In this document: piece by piece, positions 14,294 through 64,000 of the stretch
Layout: every line of letters starts with the position of its first letter
Position numbering within the stretch: position 1 is the stretch's first letter
Origin: Archangium sp.
GTDB lineage: Bacteria > Myxococcota > Myxococcia > Myxococcales > Myxococcaceae
Direction: 5' to 3'
Assembly (NCBI GenBank): GCA_030681645.1
Contig: JAUXRX010000030.1
Location: 1-64,000 of the forward strand
Length of the DNA: 64,000 nt
The notes under the pieces: generated by a model
The model's database searches: none
Seen by the model: only the letters and a program-made list of their open reading frames with translations
Told to the model about the DNA's origin: nothing
Made by a program: the position numbers and the translations under genes

Positions 14294-14426
14294 GGCCGGG
14301 AGATTGTGACACCTGCAAGTGGCAACTCCGAGCGCGGGGATGCTCCAGTGGGGCGTCTGGTGTCTTTCCGGGTCGAGCAAGATCGGGGCCCTGCGCGGCG
14401 GACCCGGGTTTGCACAGCTGCTCGGC

Positions 14427-15062
14427 ATGACGGTGGACAGATCAGCCGGGCCGCGCAGCCAGGGCGCGATCCAGGAGACAGCGCAGGCGCTCGTGGCGCG
14501 CGGCGAGACCGTCGAGGCCGTGCGGCTGCTCGACCGGTTCCTGGCCGAGTTCGATGGCGACTGGGGCATGTGGCTGTACTTCGCGGGGTTGTGCGCGCGG
14601 CTGGGCAAGCGCGACGAAGCGGTGGCGGCGTACCGGGCGTGCGCACGGCAGCTCGAGGGTGATGGGCACTTCGCGCGCGCGAAGGATGCGCTGCTGTCGG
14701 CGATGCGACTGGTGCCGCGCGATGAGGCGCTCAGGCGGGAGATCGATCGGGTGGGGCGCTCGTCGCGCCGGCCCCAGCCACAGCGCGAGCGGTTGGCTCC
14801 GCCGGTGGTCGACCCGCAGGAGACGTGTCTGCTGATGCCGGCGGTGGAAGCCCCGGCGCCGGCGCGGCTGCCCGACCCCAGGGTTCATCTCACCAGCGTG
14901 ATCCCCGGGCGCGCGAAGTCGAAGCGTCCGCCTCCTTCGCCCGAGGTGACGGATCCGTATTGTCCCATCTTCGAGATCCTCGACGCTGAGCGCGCTGCTC
15001 CTCCACCGGGTCCGCGGGGTGGGATGGCCGCCCGCCCGACCGTCAACGGGCGCCGAGCTTGA
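14427..15062 (+). CDS. Small TPR-like protein
   Basis: A 211-residue protein starting at the ATG 14427, divergent from the TatD-like/kinase operon with 133 bp between the starts. Residues 10-100 form two or three helical hairpins of TPR type (ALVARGETVEAVRLLDRFL, LGKRDEAVAAYRACA, ARAKDALLSAMRLVPRD). The rest is Pro/Arg-rich and probably disordered. There is no signal peptide, so it should be cytoplasmic. The TPR part suggests protein-protein contacts, perhaps with the nearby kinase, but that link is by position only. Confidence 0.6.
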   Translation: MTVDRSAGPRSQGAIQETAQALVARGETVEAVRLLDRFLAEFDGDWGMWLYFAGLCARLGKRDEAVAAYRACARQLEGDGHFARAKDALLSAMRLVPRDEALRREIDRVGRSSRRPQPQRERLAPPVVDPQETCLLMPAVEAPAPARLPDPRVHLTSVIPGRAKSKRPPPSPEVTDPYCPIFEILDAERAAPPPGPRGGMAARPTVNGRRA

Positions 15063-15405
15063 AGACGCCTTCATGAGACGTGGGCCTGTCTGGTTTGCGC
15101 CGTGCTCGTCTCGCAATGGCCTCTCGGCTTGGGCAAGGACGCGAAGGTGAGCGCCGGCCGTGCCCCTTTCCCAGCCGCGTAATGGACCATTACCGCGCGG
15201 TCATGGTCCATTACGCGCCCGGGCGACAGAGCCCGCCGCCCGCCCGATTCACTCTCGGATCCTTGCCCGAAGCGAGAGGCCTGTGCGCGCTCGGCACGAG
15301 CCCGACACCAGGACAACTGCCTTCCTTCGAGCCAGCCACACAATCACCACGGTCCGCGCGAACGGCGTGTCGGACCCGGCGACTGCCCGGGTTGGAACGC
15401 ACGCC
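15063..15405. other. 343-bp gene-free gap holding a large imperfect palindrome
   Basis: No convincing gene is present. Frames are open on both strands, but their translations mirror each other (both contain a VMDH.RAVMVHYA segment) because the DNA is palindromic, not because it codes. The gap lies between convergent genes: the TPR-like gene ends at 15062 and the HD-domain gene ends at 15406. Confidence 0.7.
15078..15318. repeat. Large imperfect inverted repeat with a perfect 15-bp core
   Basis: The core is CGCGTAATGGACCAT (15176-15190) and ATGGTCCATTACGCG (15203-15217), a perfect 15-bp inverted repeat around a 12-nt GC-rich spacer. The symmetry continues outward: GGCCTCTCG...GGGCAAGGA...GTGA on the left (about 15118-15150) matches the reverse complement on the right (about 15245-15281). 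Weaker similarity runs to about 15078 and 15318, giving arms near 110-120 nt. As RNA it would fold into one long hairpin. It is unlike the family-A and family-B repeats. It could be a non-autonomous mobile element, a structured RNA or a long terminator. Confidence 0.7.
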
Positions 15406-16755
15406 TCAGTGCGCGCGGGGCTTGAGGGCGCCGCGGATCTTTCCGTCGGTCGCCAGATCGATCACCTCGCGCTGCGTGGGCGCGCTGCCGTCGGGCATGC
15501 GCACCACCAGCGCCCGCGGCTTCGCGAACGACTCCGGGCTGCGCACGCAGGAACAGCTCTTCACGATCCGCCCGTCTTCGAGCGCGAGGAACGTGCCCGG
15601 CGGGAACTGGCCGAGCGTGTTGATCAGCAACTGCGTGAGCACCGGGTCGTAGTGACGGTTCGCGCCACCCGCGAGGTGAGCGAGCGCCTCGGGCGGCGTC
15701 TGCCCACCCCCGTTCGGCCGGAGCATCGTGTCGTAGTCCTCGGCGATGCGGAGCAGCCGGCCGATCAACGGCGTGCGCCGCCCTCCCGACTCGACCTCGG
15801 CGTGGTGGTACAGCGCCCCGAACGCGCGCCGCACCTTCGCCTCGTGAAAGCCGAGCTGCCGCAACAGCGCCCGCGCCCCGGTCATCGGGTGGCCTTCCAG
15901 GCTCGGCGGCAACGCACCGGGCACCGCGTACCCCACGTCGTGCGTGAGCGCCGCCACCCCGAAGTCCTGCTGCAGGCCCGGCGGCAAGCCGATCGCCTGC
16001 GCCAGCAGCAACACCAGCTGCGTCACCCTGAACGCGTGAAACCCATGCGGCGAAGCGTGCGGCAGCTCGGCGAGCCAGAGCGCCTCGTTCGCGGGCCCGA
16101 CGCCGAGCAGGTCGACCACCAGCCTCCGCAGCGCGAGCACGTTCGCCTGCCGGCCTGACGCGAGGTTGTCCCAGGTGTCTTCCACCTGCCGCACCACGCG
16201 CTTCACCACCGAGAGCGCGTCGTCGCCGCTGCCTTCGTCTTCCGTCATGCGGAAGCGATAGATGCCGAACAGCTCGACGTTGCGGATGTCTTCGGCCCGC
16301 AGCGTGCTGGTGATCGCGTTGCGAGGGTGGGGCGGGTTCGCCTTTCCACCCAGCAGCGCGACCAGGCGCCGAAGCTGCGGCGGGCTCACCTCGCCGTGAA
16401 AGGTGAGGCCGCCGATGTTGTGGCGATGCAGCTCAGAGCCCAGGTCGTGGCCGGGGTTGCTCGGCACCTTCATGCGCACGTCGTTCAGGTAGAGCTGATC
16501 TTCCACCGTCACCAACTGCACCGAGCCCAGCAGGCCAGACAGCGACTCGAGCGCCTTCTTGAGATCGATCACCGGCTGATCGAACGCGTGGTTGTCCGGC
16601 GCGTGCACCCGGCCCATGCGAATGAGGCCGTTGAGGAGGTTGGCGAACTGCTCCCCGCGCTCGCGCACCTGGGCCATGAGCACCTTGTCTTCGCCGGCCT
16701 TCGAGCGCGCGAGCGCCTTGCCCAGGTTCGATTGGGCTCGTTGGAGATCATCCAT
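15406..16755 (-). CDS. HD-domain protein (HD-GYP-like)
   Basis: A 449-residue cytoplasmic protein. The C-terminal half has HD phosphohydrolase features: an H.FRV helix, THDVGYA with the HD pair at 272-273, then GHPMTGARALL, YHHAEVESGG and RLLRIAEDYDTMLRP. The order resembles HD-GYP domains, but the GYP motif is not intact, so cyclic-di-GMP hydrolysis is uncertain. The N-terminal half (about 30-200) has a VTVEDQLYLNDVRM strand and a helical segment that resemble the start of the neighbouring HEAT-like protein. Its start codon lies 8 nt inside the end of that upstream gene, so the two are translationally coupled and probably work together in signalling. Confidence 0.75.
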   Translation of the reverse strand: MDDLQRAQSNLGKALARSKAGEDKVLMAQVRERGEQFANLLNGLIRMGRVHAPDNHAFDQPVIDLKKALESLSGLLGSVQLVTVEDQLYLNDVRMKVPSNPGHDLGSELHRHNIGGLTFHGEVSPPQLRRLVALLGGKANPPHPRNAITSTLRAEDIRNVELFGIYRFRMTEDEGSGDDALSVVKRVVRQVEDTWDNLASGRQANVLALRRLVVDLLGVGPANEALWLAELPHASPHGFHAFRVTQLVLLLAQAIGLPPGLQQDFGVAALTHDVGYAVPGALPPSLEGHPMTGARALLRQLGFHEAKVRRAFGALYHHAEVESGGRRTPLIGRLLRIAEDYDTMLRPNGGGQTPPEALAHLAGGANRHYDPVLTQLLINTLGQFPPGTFLALEDGRIVKSCSCVRSPESFAKPRALVVRMPDGSAPTQREVIDLATDGKIRGALKPRAH

Positions 16756-41560: not shown

Positions 41561-43066
41561 TCAGTTGGCCAGCCGGGTCTGGCAGTTGACGGTCCCCGTC
41601 GCCGTGTCGCAGCAGAACCCGGTGTTGACGTTGCACTGCGTCATGCCCGCAACGTTCGCGCACTCGGTGCTGTTGGTGCACTTCGGCCAGAGCACGCCCA
41701 CGGTGGGCTCGGTGGAGGACTTCGAGAAGCAGGTGTAGCCGGACCGGCTCGAGCCGGCCGAGCCAGGCGTCGTGCAGGTGCCCAGGCAGTAGTAGTTGGT
41801 GCCACCGTCAGACAGCGGGAAACCCATCTCGGTCTTTCCGGCGGCGGTGCACCAGGTGTCCGGAGGCGCGAGATCGGAGCTGGCGAGGCAGTAGCCGTTC
41901 GGGAAGCTGGCCTGGCACGCTGCGAGGATCGGATCGGGGGGGGTGGCGCAGTCCGCCGAGGTGGTGCACGCGTTGCCGGCCTTGGTGGGGTTACCGCCGC
42001 CCGTGAACGTGGCGATGCTCCCCGTGCCGAGCAGCAGCATGCAGCCCGCGGCAGGGGCCGCGCCCGTGAGGGGCTCGACCGGAAGGCACTGGAAGCCCGT
42101 GGTGCAAGTCGCCGTCGAAGTGCAGGTGCGGGTGCAGAAGCGATCGACCTCGTTGAAGAGGTAGGGGTAGGTGCTGATGCCGCCCGCGCAGACTGCGTTG
42201 GCGGGGCAGGTGCCGGTGCAGGGCAGCGTGCAGAAGCCGCTCGCGTAGGCCGTCGGGGCCGTCGCTCCGAAGGGGGTCGTCTGGAGCTTGCAGTACGCCC
42301 CTGCGCCGAGCCCCGTGCACTGGCTCGAATTCGTGCAAGTCATGCCGACCGACACCGTGCCACCGCCACCGCCGCCGGTGCCTCCACCGGTCCCGCCGCC
42401 GGTGCCACCGCCGACGCCACCGCCGACGCCGCCACCCGTGCCGCCGGTGCAGACGTAGTTCACGCAGTTCGCCGTGCCGGAGCAGGTCGCACACTGCACG
42501 CCGCCCTCACCGCAGATGGTGTTGTTGTTCGAGTTCGCGCGGATGATGCAGGTGCCCTGGAAGAAGCAGCCGTCGCAGGTCGAGCCGCCGCCGCCACCAG
42601 TCACGCCGCCTCCGGTGCCGCCGCCCGTGACGCCGCCGCCCGTGCCCCCGCCCGTCACGCCGCCGCCCGTGCCTCCGCCCGTGCCTCCGCCCGTCACGCC
42701 GCCGCCCGTGCCTCCTCCCGTGACGCCGCCGCCGGTGCCGCCGCCCGTGACGCCGCCGCCGGTGCCGCCGCCCGTGACGCCGCCGCCAGTCCCGCCACCA
42801 CTGCCACCGCCGTTGCCGCCGCCGTTGCCGTTGGTCTGCGAGCAGGTGCCGAGGTTGCAGGCCTGGGCGATCTGGCAGACCGCGCAGGTGCCGCCGAGCT
42901 GGCCGCAGGCGCCGTTCGAGGTGCCGAGCTGGCATTCGCCCTTGGCGTCACAACAGCCAGACGCGCAGGTCGTCGAGCTACAGTTCTTCGCGGTGCCACA
43001 CGACGGCGCAATGGCCATGACCACGCCGATGGCAAACCCGGCGAGCAGATGCTTCACGTTCTTCAT
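41561..43066 (-). CDS. Cys-rich exported protein with long Gly/Thr/Val repeats
   Basis: A 501-residue exported protein. The ATG at 43066 has GAGGA just upstream, and the signal (MKNVKHLLAGFAIGVVMAIAPSC) could end at a lipobox. Cys-rich modules with about 5-10-residue Cys spacing (CSSTTCASGCCDAKGEC, and CTLPCTGTCPANAVCAGG later) are separated by a Gly-rich linker built from the nonapeptide GGGVTGGGT (about residues 77-157) and a second shorter Gly block (about 210-240). The Cys modules are disulfide domains of the kind common in myxobacterial surface proteins; the Gly linkers should be extended and flexible. No enzyme motif is present. Confidence 0.75.
   Translation of the reverse strand: MKNVKHLLAGFAIGVVMAIAPSCGTAKNCSSTTCASGCCDAKGECQLGTSNGACGQLGGTCAVCQIAQACNLGTCSQTNGNGGGNGGGSGGGTGGGVTGGGTGGGVTGGGTGGGVTGGGTGGGVTGGGTGGGTGGGVTGGGTGGGVTGGGTGGGVTGGGGGSTCDGCFFQGTCIIRANSNNNTICGEGGVQCATCSGTANCVNYVCTGGTGGGVGGGVGGGTGGGTGGGTGGGGGGTVSVGMTCTNSSQCTGLGAGAYCKLQTTPFGATAPTAYASGFCTLPCTGTCPANAVCAGGISTYPYLFNEVDRFCTRTCTSTATCTTGFQCLPVEPLTGAAPAAGCMLLLGTGSIATFTGGGNPTKAGNACTTSADCATPPDPILAACQASFPNGYCLASSDLAPPDTWCTAAGKTEMGFPLSDGGTNYYCLGTCTTPGSAGSSRSGYTCFSKSSTEPTVGVLWPKCTNSTECANVAGMTQCNVNTGFCCDTATGTVNCQTRLAN
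42594..42833. repeat. In-frame 27-bp tandem repeats (Gly-rich linker)
   Basis: About seven copies of a 27-bp unit coding for GGGVTGGGT, with one copy carrying an extra 12 bp (GGGT). All copies keep the reading frame, and length change by slippage would only alter linker length. This is not a CRISPR array: there are no unique spacers. Confidence 0.8.
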
Positions 43067-62636: not shown

Positions 62637-64000
62637 TCAGAGGCGCTTCGTCGGCTCGGTCCACACCCAGCCGACGCGCCACCGCGCCGAATCTGCCAGC
62701 GTCTCGCGACCCAGCAGGCCGAGGAAGACCTGCCAGAGGAAGTGCTCCGGGTGGTAGCTGACCAGATCGACGAAGGGGAAGAAGTGGAAGCCCCACGACT
62801 TGCCCAGCTTCGTCTGGCCGTACGACCACATCACGTTGAGCAGGAGGTGCGTCGTCTCCTCGGGCTTCTCGTACCGCCAGTAGATCGGGAAGAAGGTCGT
62901 CAGCCGCGTGCCTGAGGCCTTCGACTTGAAGTCCCAGAAGAACGGCGCCACCACCCGCGCGTCGACGTCGGGCCCGGCCCAGTGCCAATAGAGCCCGCCC
63001 ACCACCGTGCGCTCGAAGCCCGGGCCCTTCGAGAACACCGCCAGCGGCGAGACGAGCAGCGTGGTGTCGGCGGTCTCGCGGTAGTCGAAGAAGGGCAACG
63101 CCATCACGTGCCGGCTCTGGGCCGTGGCGCTCCGGTAGAACAGCAGCGGAGGGATGAGGTCCCACGACTTCTCGGCGCCGCGCCCACCGAAGTAGAGGGG
63201 CGCCAGGCCGAACACCGACCCCGAGGCCTCGCGGTGGTGGAAGGCGGGGCCGACGATGGTGGTCGTCCGTTCCTTGTCGCCCCAGCGCCAGAACAGCGGA
63301 GGCACCACGGTGTGGTGTTCTTCTCCCTCGCGCCCCAGGAAAAGAAACGGCACCGAGGCGAGGGTGAAGCCGGTGGGGCGCGACTGGAACCAGGTGAGCA
63401 GCGGGGGGATGAAGAGCGAGTGTCTGCCTTCCTCGCGGAAGCTCCAGAAGAGCGGCGGCGAGACGTCGTACCCACCCAGGATCCCGCGGCCGGCGAAGTA
63501 GAGCGGGGCGATGCCGAAGTCCCAGCGGTGCGGCGCCTCGTGGAAGAACACGTTGGCCGCGATGGTGGTCGAGCGGTCCTTGTCACCCCAGCGCCAGAAG
63601 AGCGGAGGCACCACGGTGTGGTGCTGGTCGCCCTCGCGGCCGGCGAAGAGGAAGGGAAACGAGGCCAGGGTGAAGCCGTTGGGCCGCGACTGGTACCAGG
63701 CGAGCAGCGGCGGGAGGAACAGCGAATGCCTGGTCTCGTCGCGGAAGCTCCAGAACAGCAGCGGCGAGACGTCGTAGTCGCCCTTGAGCCCGCGGCCGCC
63801 GAAGTAGAGCGGCACGATGCCGAAGTCGTCCTGGGTGGTGGTCTCGTGCAGGAAGGCGGTGCCGACGATCGTGGTCGTCTCGACCGGGTCGCCCCAGCGC
63901 TCGAAGAACGGCGGAACGAAGGTGTGGTGCGAGTCACCCTCGCGGCCCGCGAAGACGAAGGGCACGACGTTGAGGGTGAAGCCGTTGGGGCGCGACTGGT
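62637..64000 (-). CDS. Aromatic-rich 102-residue repeat protein (5' truncated)
   Basis: The frame stays open to the right edge, so the N terminus is missing; at least 454 residues are visible. Residues repeat every 102 amino acids with blocks FPFLFAGREGDQHHTVVPPLFWRWGDKD..TTIAANVFFHEA..FGIAPLYFAGRG..YDVSPPLFWSFRE..HSLFIPPLL (each part given separately). Alternating aromatic and polar residues suggest beta-strands, as in an outer-membrane barrel or beta-solenoid. After the repeats the end is non-repetitive (YWRYEKPEETTHLLLNVMWSYGQ). No known family is assigned. It is probably an envelope protein. Confidence 0.72.
   Translation of the reverse strand, partial: QSRPNGFTLNVVPFVFAGREGDSHHTFVPPFFERWGDPVETTTIVGTAFLHETTTQDDFGIVPLYFGGRGLKGDYDVSPLLFWSFRDETRHSLFLPPLLAWYQSRPNGFTLASFPFLFAGREGDQHHTVVPPLFWRWGDKDRSTTIAANVFFHEAPHRWDFGIAPLYFAGRGILGGYDVSPPLFWSFREEGRHSLFIPPLLTWFQSRPTGFTLASVPFLFLGREGEEHHTVVPPLFWRWGDKERTTTIVGPAFHHREASGSVFGLAPLYFGGRGAEKSWDLIPPLLFYRSATAQSRHVMALPFFDYRETADTTLLVSPLAVFSKGPGFERTVVGGLYWHWAGPDVDARVVAPFFWDFKSKASGTRLTTFFPIYWRYEKPEETTHLLLNVMWSYGQTKLGKSWGFHFFPFVDLVSYHPEHFLWQVFLGLLGRETLADSARWRVGWVWTEPTKRL
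63073..64000 (-). repeat. Three 306-bp tandem repeats
   Basis: Anchor GACTGG sequences recur exactly 306 bp apart (ending near 64000, 63694 and 63388), equal to 102 codons. The two right-hand units are most alike, and the third is more diverged. The array runs off the window edge. Confidence 0.8.

What the first reader, a model, noticed from the sequence alone, without database searches (positions are those of the whole stretch)
15078..15318. Long imperfect palindrome with a perfect 15-bp core in a gene-free gap
The core CGCGTAATGGACCAT / ATGGTCCATTACGCG is perfect and the symmetry extends over about 240 bp. In the best outer part (about 15118-15150 against 15245-15281) I count roughly 75% identity. 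It does not match the two dispersed repeat families. Its size exceeds normal terminators. As RNA it would be a single long hairpin, similar in scale to a retron msd or small-RNA hairpin, but no reverse transcriptase gene is in view. It could also be a non-autonomous mobile element.
Basis: seen in the sequence. Interest (0 to 1): 0.6.

Follow-up and report, generated by a model that had tools for sequence, protein, structure and literature searches.

The report
Repeated palindrome with MarR-type protein partner
The palindrome is one of dozens of scattered copies of a small mobile-looking DNA element in this bacterium, and it appears to be a gene-less remnant of a longer version that encodes a DNA-binding protein of the MarR family, whose likely binding sites form the conserved centre of the palindrome.

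Summary
The palindrome is real (fold z = -6.5) and is not a lone structure. It is one copy, about 15066-15335, of a dispersed intergenic repeat family: roughly 80 terminal arms and at least 27 cores in the 10.2 Mb genome. Its ends are sharp and it lies outside genes in all 30 classified copies.

The centre is two 15-bp dyads, GTAATGGWCCATTAC, 21 bp apart. They are 97-100% conserved, while the arms drift (47-71%) and show no compensatory pairing. This argues for a protein-binding site, not a selected RNA hairpin.

Full-length relatives (862-1012 bp, same ends) carry one gene, a MarR-fold protein, with the dyad pair just after its stop codon. Relatives with diverged proteins carry different dyads in the same scaffold. 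Protein and dyad divergence correlate (Mantel r = 0.57, p = 0.0005).

I read it as a MITE/REPIN-like element whose partner gene is a winged-helix protein instead of a transposase, confined essentially to one Myxococcales genus. No transposase, target-site duplication or binding data were found, so mobility and binding are inferred.

The parts
15066..15335 (.). whole element: gene-less copy of the dispersed family, about 270 bp
   Evidence: left end from the family conservation profile and motif position 15067; right end where the copies L017 and L018 stop agreeing; complete gene-less copies with a core are 257-277 bp
15066..15099 (+). left terminal sequence (family consensus GGCCT..AGGGGCGcGGTG)
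15100..15150 (+). left arm (CCGTGCTCGTC..GGGCAAGGACGCGAAGGTGA)
   Evidence: 90% to the arm consensus; about 80 arms genome-wide
15170..15178 (+). inner stem, left side
   Evidence: inverted repeat I2; 67% conserved
15179..15193 (+). dyad 1, GTAATGGACCATTAC, proposed binding site of a MarR-type dimer
   Evidence: 100% conserved in 20 copies
15194..15199 (.). 6-nt spacer CGCGCG (dyad centres 21 bp apart)
15200..15214 (+). dyad 2, GTCATGGTCCATTAC, second proposed binding site
   Evidence: 97% conserved in 20 copies
15215..15223 (+). inner stem, right side
15249..15298 (-). right arm, inverted copy of the left arm
   Evidence: 72% complementary to the left arm; arm match
15299..15335 (-). right terminal sequence (reverse complement GGCTCGAAGGAAGGCAG..)
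   Evidence: shared with L017 and L018, which then diverge
14340..15062 (+). flanking host gene; its stop lies a few nt before the left end
15406..16755 (-). flanking host gene, convergent
   Evidence: conserved at 83% DNA identity in G003

Best explanation
The palindrome is a gene-less copy of a genus-specific family of small mobile-looking elements. The parental form (862-1012 bp) has the same inverted terminal arms and carries one gene for a MarR-family winged-helix protein of about 160-170 aa, followed after its stop codon by a pair of 15-bp dyads. The window copy has lost the gene but kept both arms and the dyads. Most likely the MarR-type dimer made by the full-length copy on contig C58 binds the two dyads; their 21-bp spacing (two helical turns) would put two dimers on one face of the DNA. 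Copies spread as a MITE or REPIN does, using a transposition activity supplied in trans that I could not identify. SHOWN: the repeat family, sharp ends, intergenic location, gene-bearing relatives, conserved dyads, and protein/dyad co-divergence. INFERRED: binding, mobility, and any role of binding in spread or silencing.
For: Dispersed copies: 80 matches to the window element in its own genome; 41 half-core hits against 1 control; 61 arm-motif hits against 6 control. All 30 classified cores are intergenic in a genome that is 91% coding, and 26 of 26 arms in a sample. Sharp outer boundary. In complete copies lengths cluster: mostly 152-218 without core, 257-277 with core, 862-1012 with gene. 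Gene: MarR_2 Pfam match above cut-off; AlphaFold model pLDDT 79 with MarR fold; Foldseek hits MepR, MexR, SlyA, MarR. All five proteins at 42-100% identity in the genus lie in such an element with a dyad pair after the stop. Most distant relatives also have their own sites there, and a strong inverted repeat within 250 nt of the stop is found in 7 of 14 against 21 of 613 control genes (p = 4.5e-7). Dyads 97-100% conserved, flanks 47-71%. Protein and dyad divergence correlate, r = 0.57, p = 0.0005. At one copy (L018, upstream of the ATP synthase beta gene) the matching sites in G004 and G005 lack the element.
Against: No target-site duplication (2.0 against 1.97 in shuffled flanks). No transposase found between arms among the genes examined. 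MarR proteins have no known strand-transfer activity. The dyads lie at the 3' side of the gene, unlike the usual promoter operator. The protein/dyad correlation can come from shared inheritance of one unit without binding. The empty sites are not clean: the intergenic sequence also differs, and synteny at the window locus is broken in G003. One relative (L170) has its palindrome upstream, and L167 shows no dyads.
Confidence: 0.68

Rival explanations
1. Ordinary MITE family: internal deletion derivatives of an undetected or extinct insertion sequence with these arms. The MarR gene is only a passenger (a mobile insertion cassette) and the dyads are its incidental sites.
For: Terminal inverted arms, gene-less and gene-bearing forms sharing ends, no catalytic protein encoded. 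Ends are shared while cores and proteins differ, so the ends are probably not what the MarR protein recognises.
Against: No transposase with these ends was seen among the examined arm-bounded loci and no target-site duplication. Dyads are the best conserved part even in gene-less copies, which a passenger would not explain.
Confidence: 0.3
2. Structured RNA or bidirectional terminator: the element is kept because its transcript folds into a long hairpin at gene 3' ends.
For: Strong predicted fold; convergent gene pairs enriched 3.8-fold (p = 0.016); arms usually start 0-36 nt after a stop codon.
Against: Arms of one copy pair no better than arms of different copies (0.53 against 0.57, permutation p = 0.93). 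Some homologous arrays are direct repeats that form no hairpin (L171). Dyad sequence, not pairing alone, is conserved. No Rfam family at gathering score.
Confidence: 0.1
3. A host regulator with a regulon: the dyads are operators scattered to control neighbouring genes.
For: MarR proteins are usually regulators (established knowledge); dyads are highly conserved.
Against: In 864 kb the dyads occur only inside elements apart from one weak match; copies favour 3' ends and convergent gaps; the gene-bearing copies are confined to one genus.
Confidence: 0.12
4. REP/RAYT system: copies are moved by the genome's Y1 transposase.
For: One Y1_Tnp gene is present (C48:229-552); REPINs are inverted pairs thought to be moved in trans (PMC3116915).
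Against: That gene is followed by its own, different repeats GCAGCCTGTCCCC; arms are about 85 nt and dyads are perfect, unlike 20-40 nt REPs.
Confidence: 0.06

Closest known systems
REPINs and RAYTs (REP doublets with a Y1 transposase; PMC3116915, PMC8266576)
   Same: Intergenic, dispersed inverted doublets forming hairpins; a gene flanked by its own cognate repeats; several repeat types in one genome, each with its own partner; co-divergence of protein and repeat.
   Different: The partner here is a MarR-fold protein with no HUH domain; element 270 bp to 1 kb with long terminal arms; each half-core is a perfect dyad.
MITEs
   Same: Size of a few hundred bp, terminal inverted repeats, no gene, intergenic.
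   Different: No target-site duplication detected; no parental transposase; the gene-bearing form encodes a DNA-binding protein.
Mobile insertion cassettes (MICs)
   Same: Inverted ends enclosing a non-transposase gene.
   Different: The gene is consistently one MarR-like family tied to matching dyads; no insertion sequence with these ends found.
ERIC-type long imperfect palindromes (from memory)
   Same: Long intergenic imperfect palindrome, dispersed.
   Different: No encoded partner is known for ERIC to my knowledge; size and sequence differ.
MarR-family regulators with palindromic operators (e.g. MepR, MexR, SlyA)
   Same: Fold and an operator-like dyad.
   Different: Sites lie mainly 3' of the gene and are spread across the genome inside copies of the element.

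Membership tests
MITE | terminal inverted repeats with sharp ends | tested here: met
MITE | target-site duplication | tested here: not met
   2.0 against 1.97 in shuffled flanks
MITE | parental autonomous element with a transposase and the same ends | tested here: inconclusive
   the arm-bounded genes seen are MarR-like or host genes, but not every arm in the genome was examined and the assembly is in 66 contigs
REPIN/RAYT | Y1 (HUH) transposase flanked by the same repeat | tested here: not met
   the only Y1_Tnp gene found has other repeats
REPIN/RAYT | inverted doublet of a conserved short repeat, intergenic, dispersed | tested here: met
MarR family (for the partner protein) | MarR winged-helix fold and profile | tested here: met
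   Pfam MarR_2 above cut-off; PDB profile hits to 3e-9; Foldseek
MarR family (for the partner protein) | binds palindromic double-stranded DNA as a dimer | not testable with these tools
   needs a binding assay on the dyads
Retron / structured RNA | reverse transcriptase gene, or covarying RNA structure | tested here: not met
   flanking genes at the window locus and arm-bounded genes tested are not reverse transcriptases; no compensatory pairing; no Rfam match
Integron attC | RYYYAAC / GTTRRRY core sites next to cassettes | not tested
   the motif was not scanned for; set aside on inspection, as copies are dispersed singly

The most novel reading that the evidence does not exclude
A class of bacterial mobile element whose only gene is a MarR-type DNA-binding protein. 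A common scaffold of terminal arms carries exchangeable specificity modules (protein plus matching dyads), and spread, silencing or copy-number control of the gene-less copies depends on that protein instead of a self-encoded transposase.
Probability: 0.3. Interest if true: 0.88.

Novelty: new variant of a known kind. Interest (0 to 1): 0.68.

Why it matters
Dispersed palindromic repeats are common in bacteria, but a protein partner is known mainly for REP sequences, and that partner is a transposase. Here the partner that diverges with the repeat is a transcription-factor-type protein. If it binds the dyads, this is a natural set of matched protein/operator pairs of differing specificity in one scaffold, useful for studying how MarR specificity evolves, and it poses a testable question: how can an element without a transposase multiply?

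Tried and rejected
Rfam scan: only a sub-threshold miRNA chance hit. Genome-collection pattern scan: only three contigs of MAG Bin_62_4. Window-locus empty site: synteny broken in G003. Target-site duplications: none. Compensatory pairing in the arms: none. Cargo genes next to copies: host genes such as EutN, ADH and HEAT proteins, not part of the element. Homologues in G022 and G006: no dyads seen. Retron, small RNA, integron attC and RAYT readings considered and set aside. Literature searches gave no report of MarR-linked dispersed palindromes, but only open-licence papers were searched. One search was an empty script.

Full report
OBSERVATION. The inverted repeat is present as described: core arms 15170-15196/15197-15223 at 89% and outer arms 15101-15150/15249-15298 at 72%. 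Both strands fold better than all 200 dinucleotide shuffles, z about -6.5. It lies between convergent genes ending at 15062 and 15406. Each half of the core is itself a near-palindrome, GTAATGGWCCATTAC, and the two copies are 21 bp apart centre to centre.

DISPERSED FAMILY. The element matches 80 places in its own genome (forward and reverse matches of one copy count separately). The half-core pattern gives 41 hits against 1 control, an arm query 48 hits, and an arm motif 61 hits against 6 control (the motif recovers 19 of 27 known arms in a sample), which suggests about 80 arms. All 30 classified cores are intergenic, as are 26 of 26 arms in a 0.86 Mb sample, in a genome that is 91% coding. 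Conservation starts abruptly at GGCCT..AGGGGCGcGGTG, about 34 nt before the arm. Arms at gene 3' ends number 53 against 24 at 5' ends, mostly 0-36 nt from a stop codon. Convergent gaps are enriched (9 of 26 against 10 of 82, p = 0.016). Among complete copies I see lengths of 152-218 bp without core, 257-277 with core, and 862-1012 with a gene; a few fall outside these classes. No target-site duplication was found.

WHAT IS CONSERVED. In 20 aligned copies dyad 1 is 100% and dyad 2 97% identical to consensus, the spacer 85%, adjacent stems 67-71%, and more distant flank 47%. The left arm of a copy is no more like its own right arm than like right arms of other copies (0.53 against 0.57, permutation p = 0.93). 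So the long hairpin looks like a by-product of inverted ends that drift independently, while the dyads are held by sequence. In the sample, dyads occur only within elements except for one weak match.

THE PARTNER GENE. In two copies a gene lies between core and right arm: an intact 171-aa protein in L028/L163 and a broken homologue in L094/L172. It matches Pfam MarR_2 above the cut-off, MarR structures by profile, and folds as a MarR protein (pLDDT 79, C-terminal tail disordered; Foldseek hits MepR, MexR, SlyA, MarR). A search of the genus found five proteins at 42-100% identity, each inside an arm-bounded element with a dyad pair after the stop codon (the G003 contig ends within the right arm). 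The dyads differ: GTAATGGWCCATTAC (C58), GTCATGGWCCATKAC (G003), GTACACCSGGTGTAC (C6), GTCAACCATGTTGCC (C30), GTAACAACCCTGTAGTTAC (G004). More distant relatives (about 215 aa) mostly carry yet other sites just after the gene (L166, L169, L171, L173, L175, L176, L177); L170 has its palindrome upstream and L167 shows none. A second site family, GTCAWCAAAGRGGACA, is likewise dispersed in the own genome (69 hits against 1 control) with sites 48-49 bp apart arranged << >> in gene-less copies. Protein and dyad distances correlate over ten pairs, Mantel r = 0.57, p = 0.0005; shared inheritance of the unit would also give this. A strong inverted repeat within 250 nt of the stop occurs in 7 of 14 family genes and 21 of 613 control genes.

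DISTRIBUTION. Strong protein matches occur in 5 of 6 genomes of the genus and in two more distant ones without visible dyads, out of 195 Myxococcota genomes. The genus member G003 is MAG Bin_62_4, a Myxococcales bacterium. At one own-genome copy upstream of the ATP synthase beta gene, G004 and G005 lack the element, though the surrounding intergenic sequence also differs.

MECHANISM. Most likely the MarR-type dimer of the full-length copy binds the dyad pair in every copy. What binding does is unknown: regulating its own mobilisation, silencing, or copy control are all open. No transposase was found inside the arm-bounded loci examined, and the genome's one Y1 transposase has different repeats of its own. 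Binding and mobility are inferences. The MITE-with-passenger reading is the strongest rival.

RELATION TO KNOWN SYSTEMS. It works like REPIN/RAYT pairs (PMC3116915; PMC8266576) in layout, but fails their defining feature, a Y1 transposase partner. It resembles a MITE, but a target-site duplication was tested and not found, and a transposase-bearing parent was looked for and not seen. I file it as a new variant of a dispersed palindromic mobile repeat.

METHOD NOTES. Genes were called with a hexamer model trained on the sampled loci. The 0.86 Mb sample includes stretches chosen because they hold copies, so it is not a random sample for density, and it is a conservative control. The background for gene orientation uses gaps of at least 200 bp from that sample. 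The dyad consensus for distant relatives was picked by eye, so the Mantel test rests on my choice of site.

Noticed in passing
L304, L308-L310: Second dispersed dyad family GTCAWCAAAGRGGACA with sites 48-49 bp apart, and its own MarR-like gene copies (L176, L177).
   Followed up: partly
L208 (C48:229-552): Single Y1 transposase gene of RAYT type followed by two GCAGCCTGTCCCC repeats; the motif also occurs 7 times in the sampled 0.86 Mb.
   Followed up: partly
contig starts C17:165, C22:1378, C23:354, C25:1, C47:219: Several contig ends of the assembly lie at or near these palindromes, suggesting that they break assemblies and that copies are undercounted.
   Followed up: no
window 22023, 23946, 27052, 62584: Another dispersed 46-nt repeat (CTCCCTCTCCCTGCGGAGCGGGGAGAGGG type).
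   Followed up: no
window 63231-64000: Tandem repeat with a 306-bp unit reaching the window end.
   Followed up: no
window 42345-42851: Short-period repeat region of 12-15 bp units.
   Followed up: no
L170 at 2130 and L101 near 1527: G003 carries another perfect palindrome, ACGTAATCRCGTGATTACGT, in one case upstream of a MarR-like gene.
   Followed up: no
L018 and L034 flanks: Two copies lie beside the same short gene-end motif (CGTGCGCGCGATGGCGTCGCGGATGA), perhaps paralogous gene ends.
   Followed up: no
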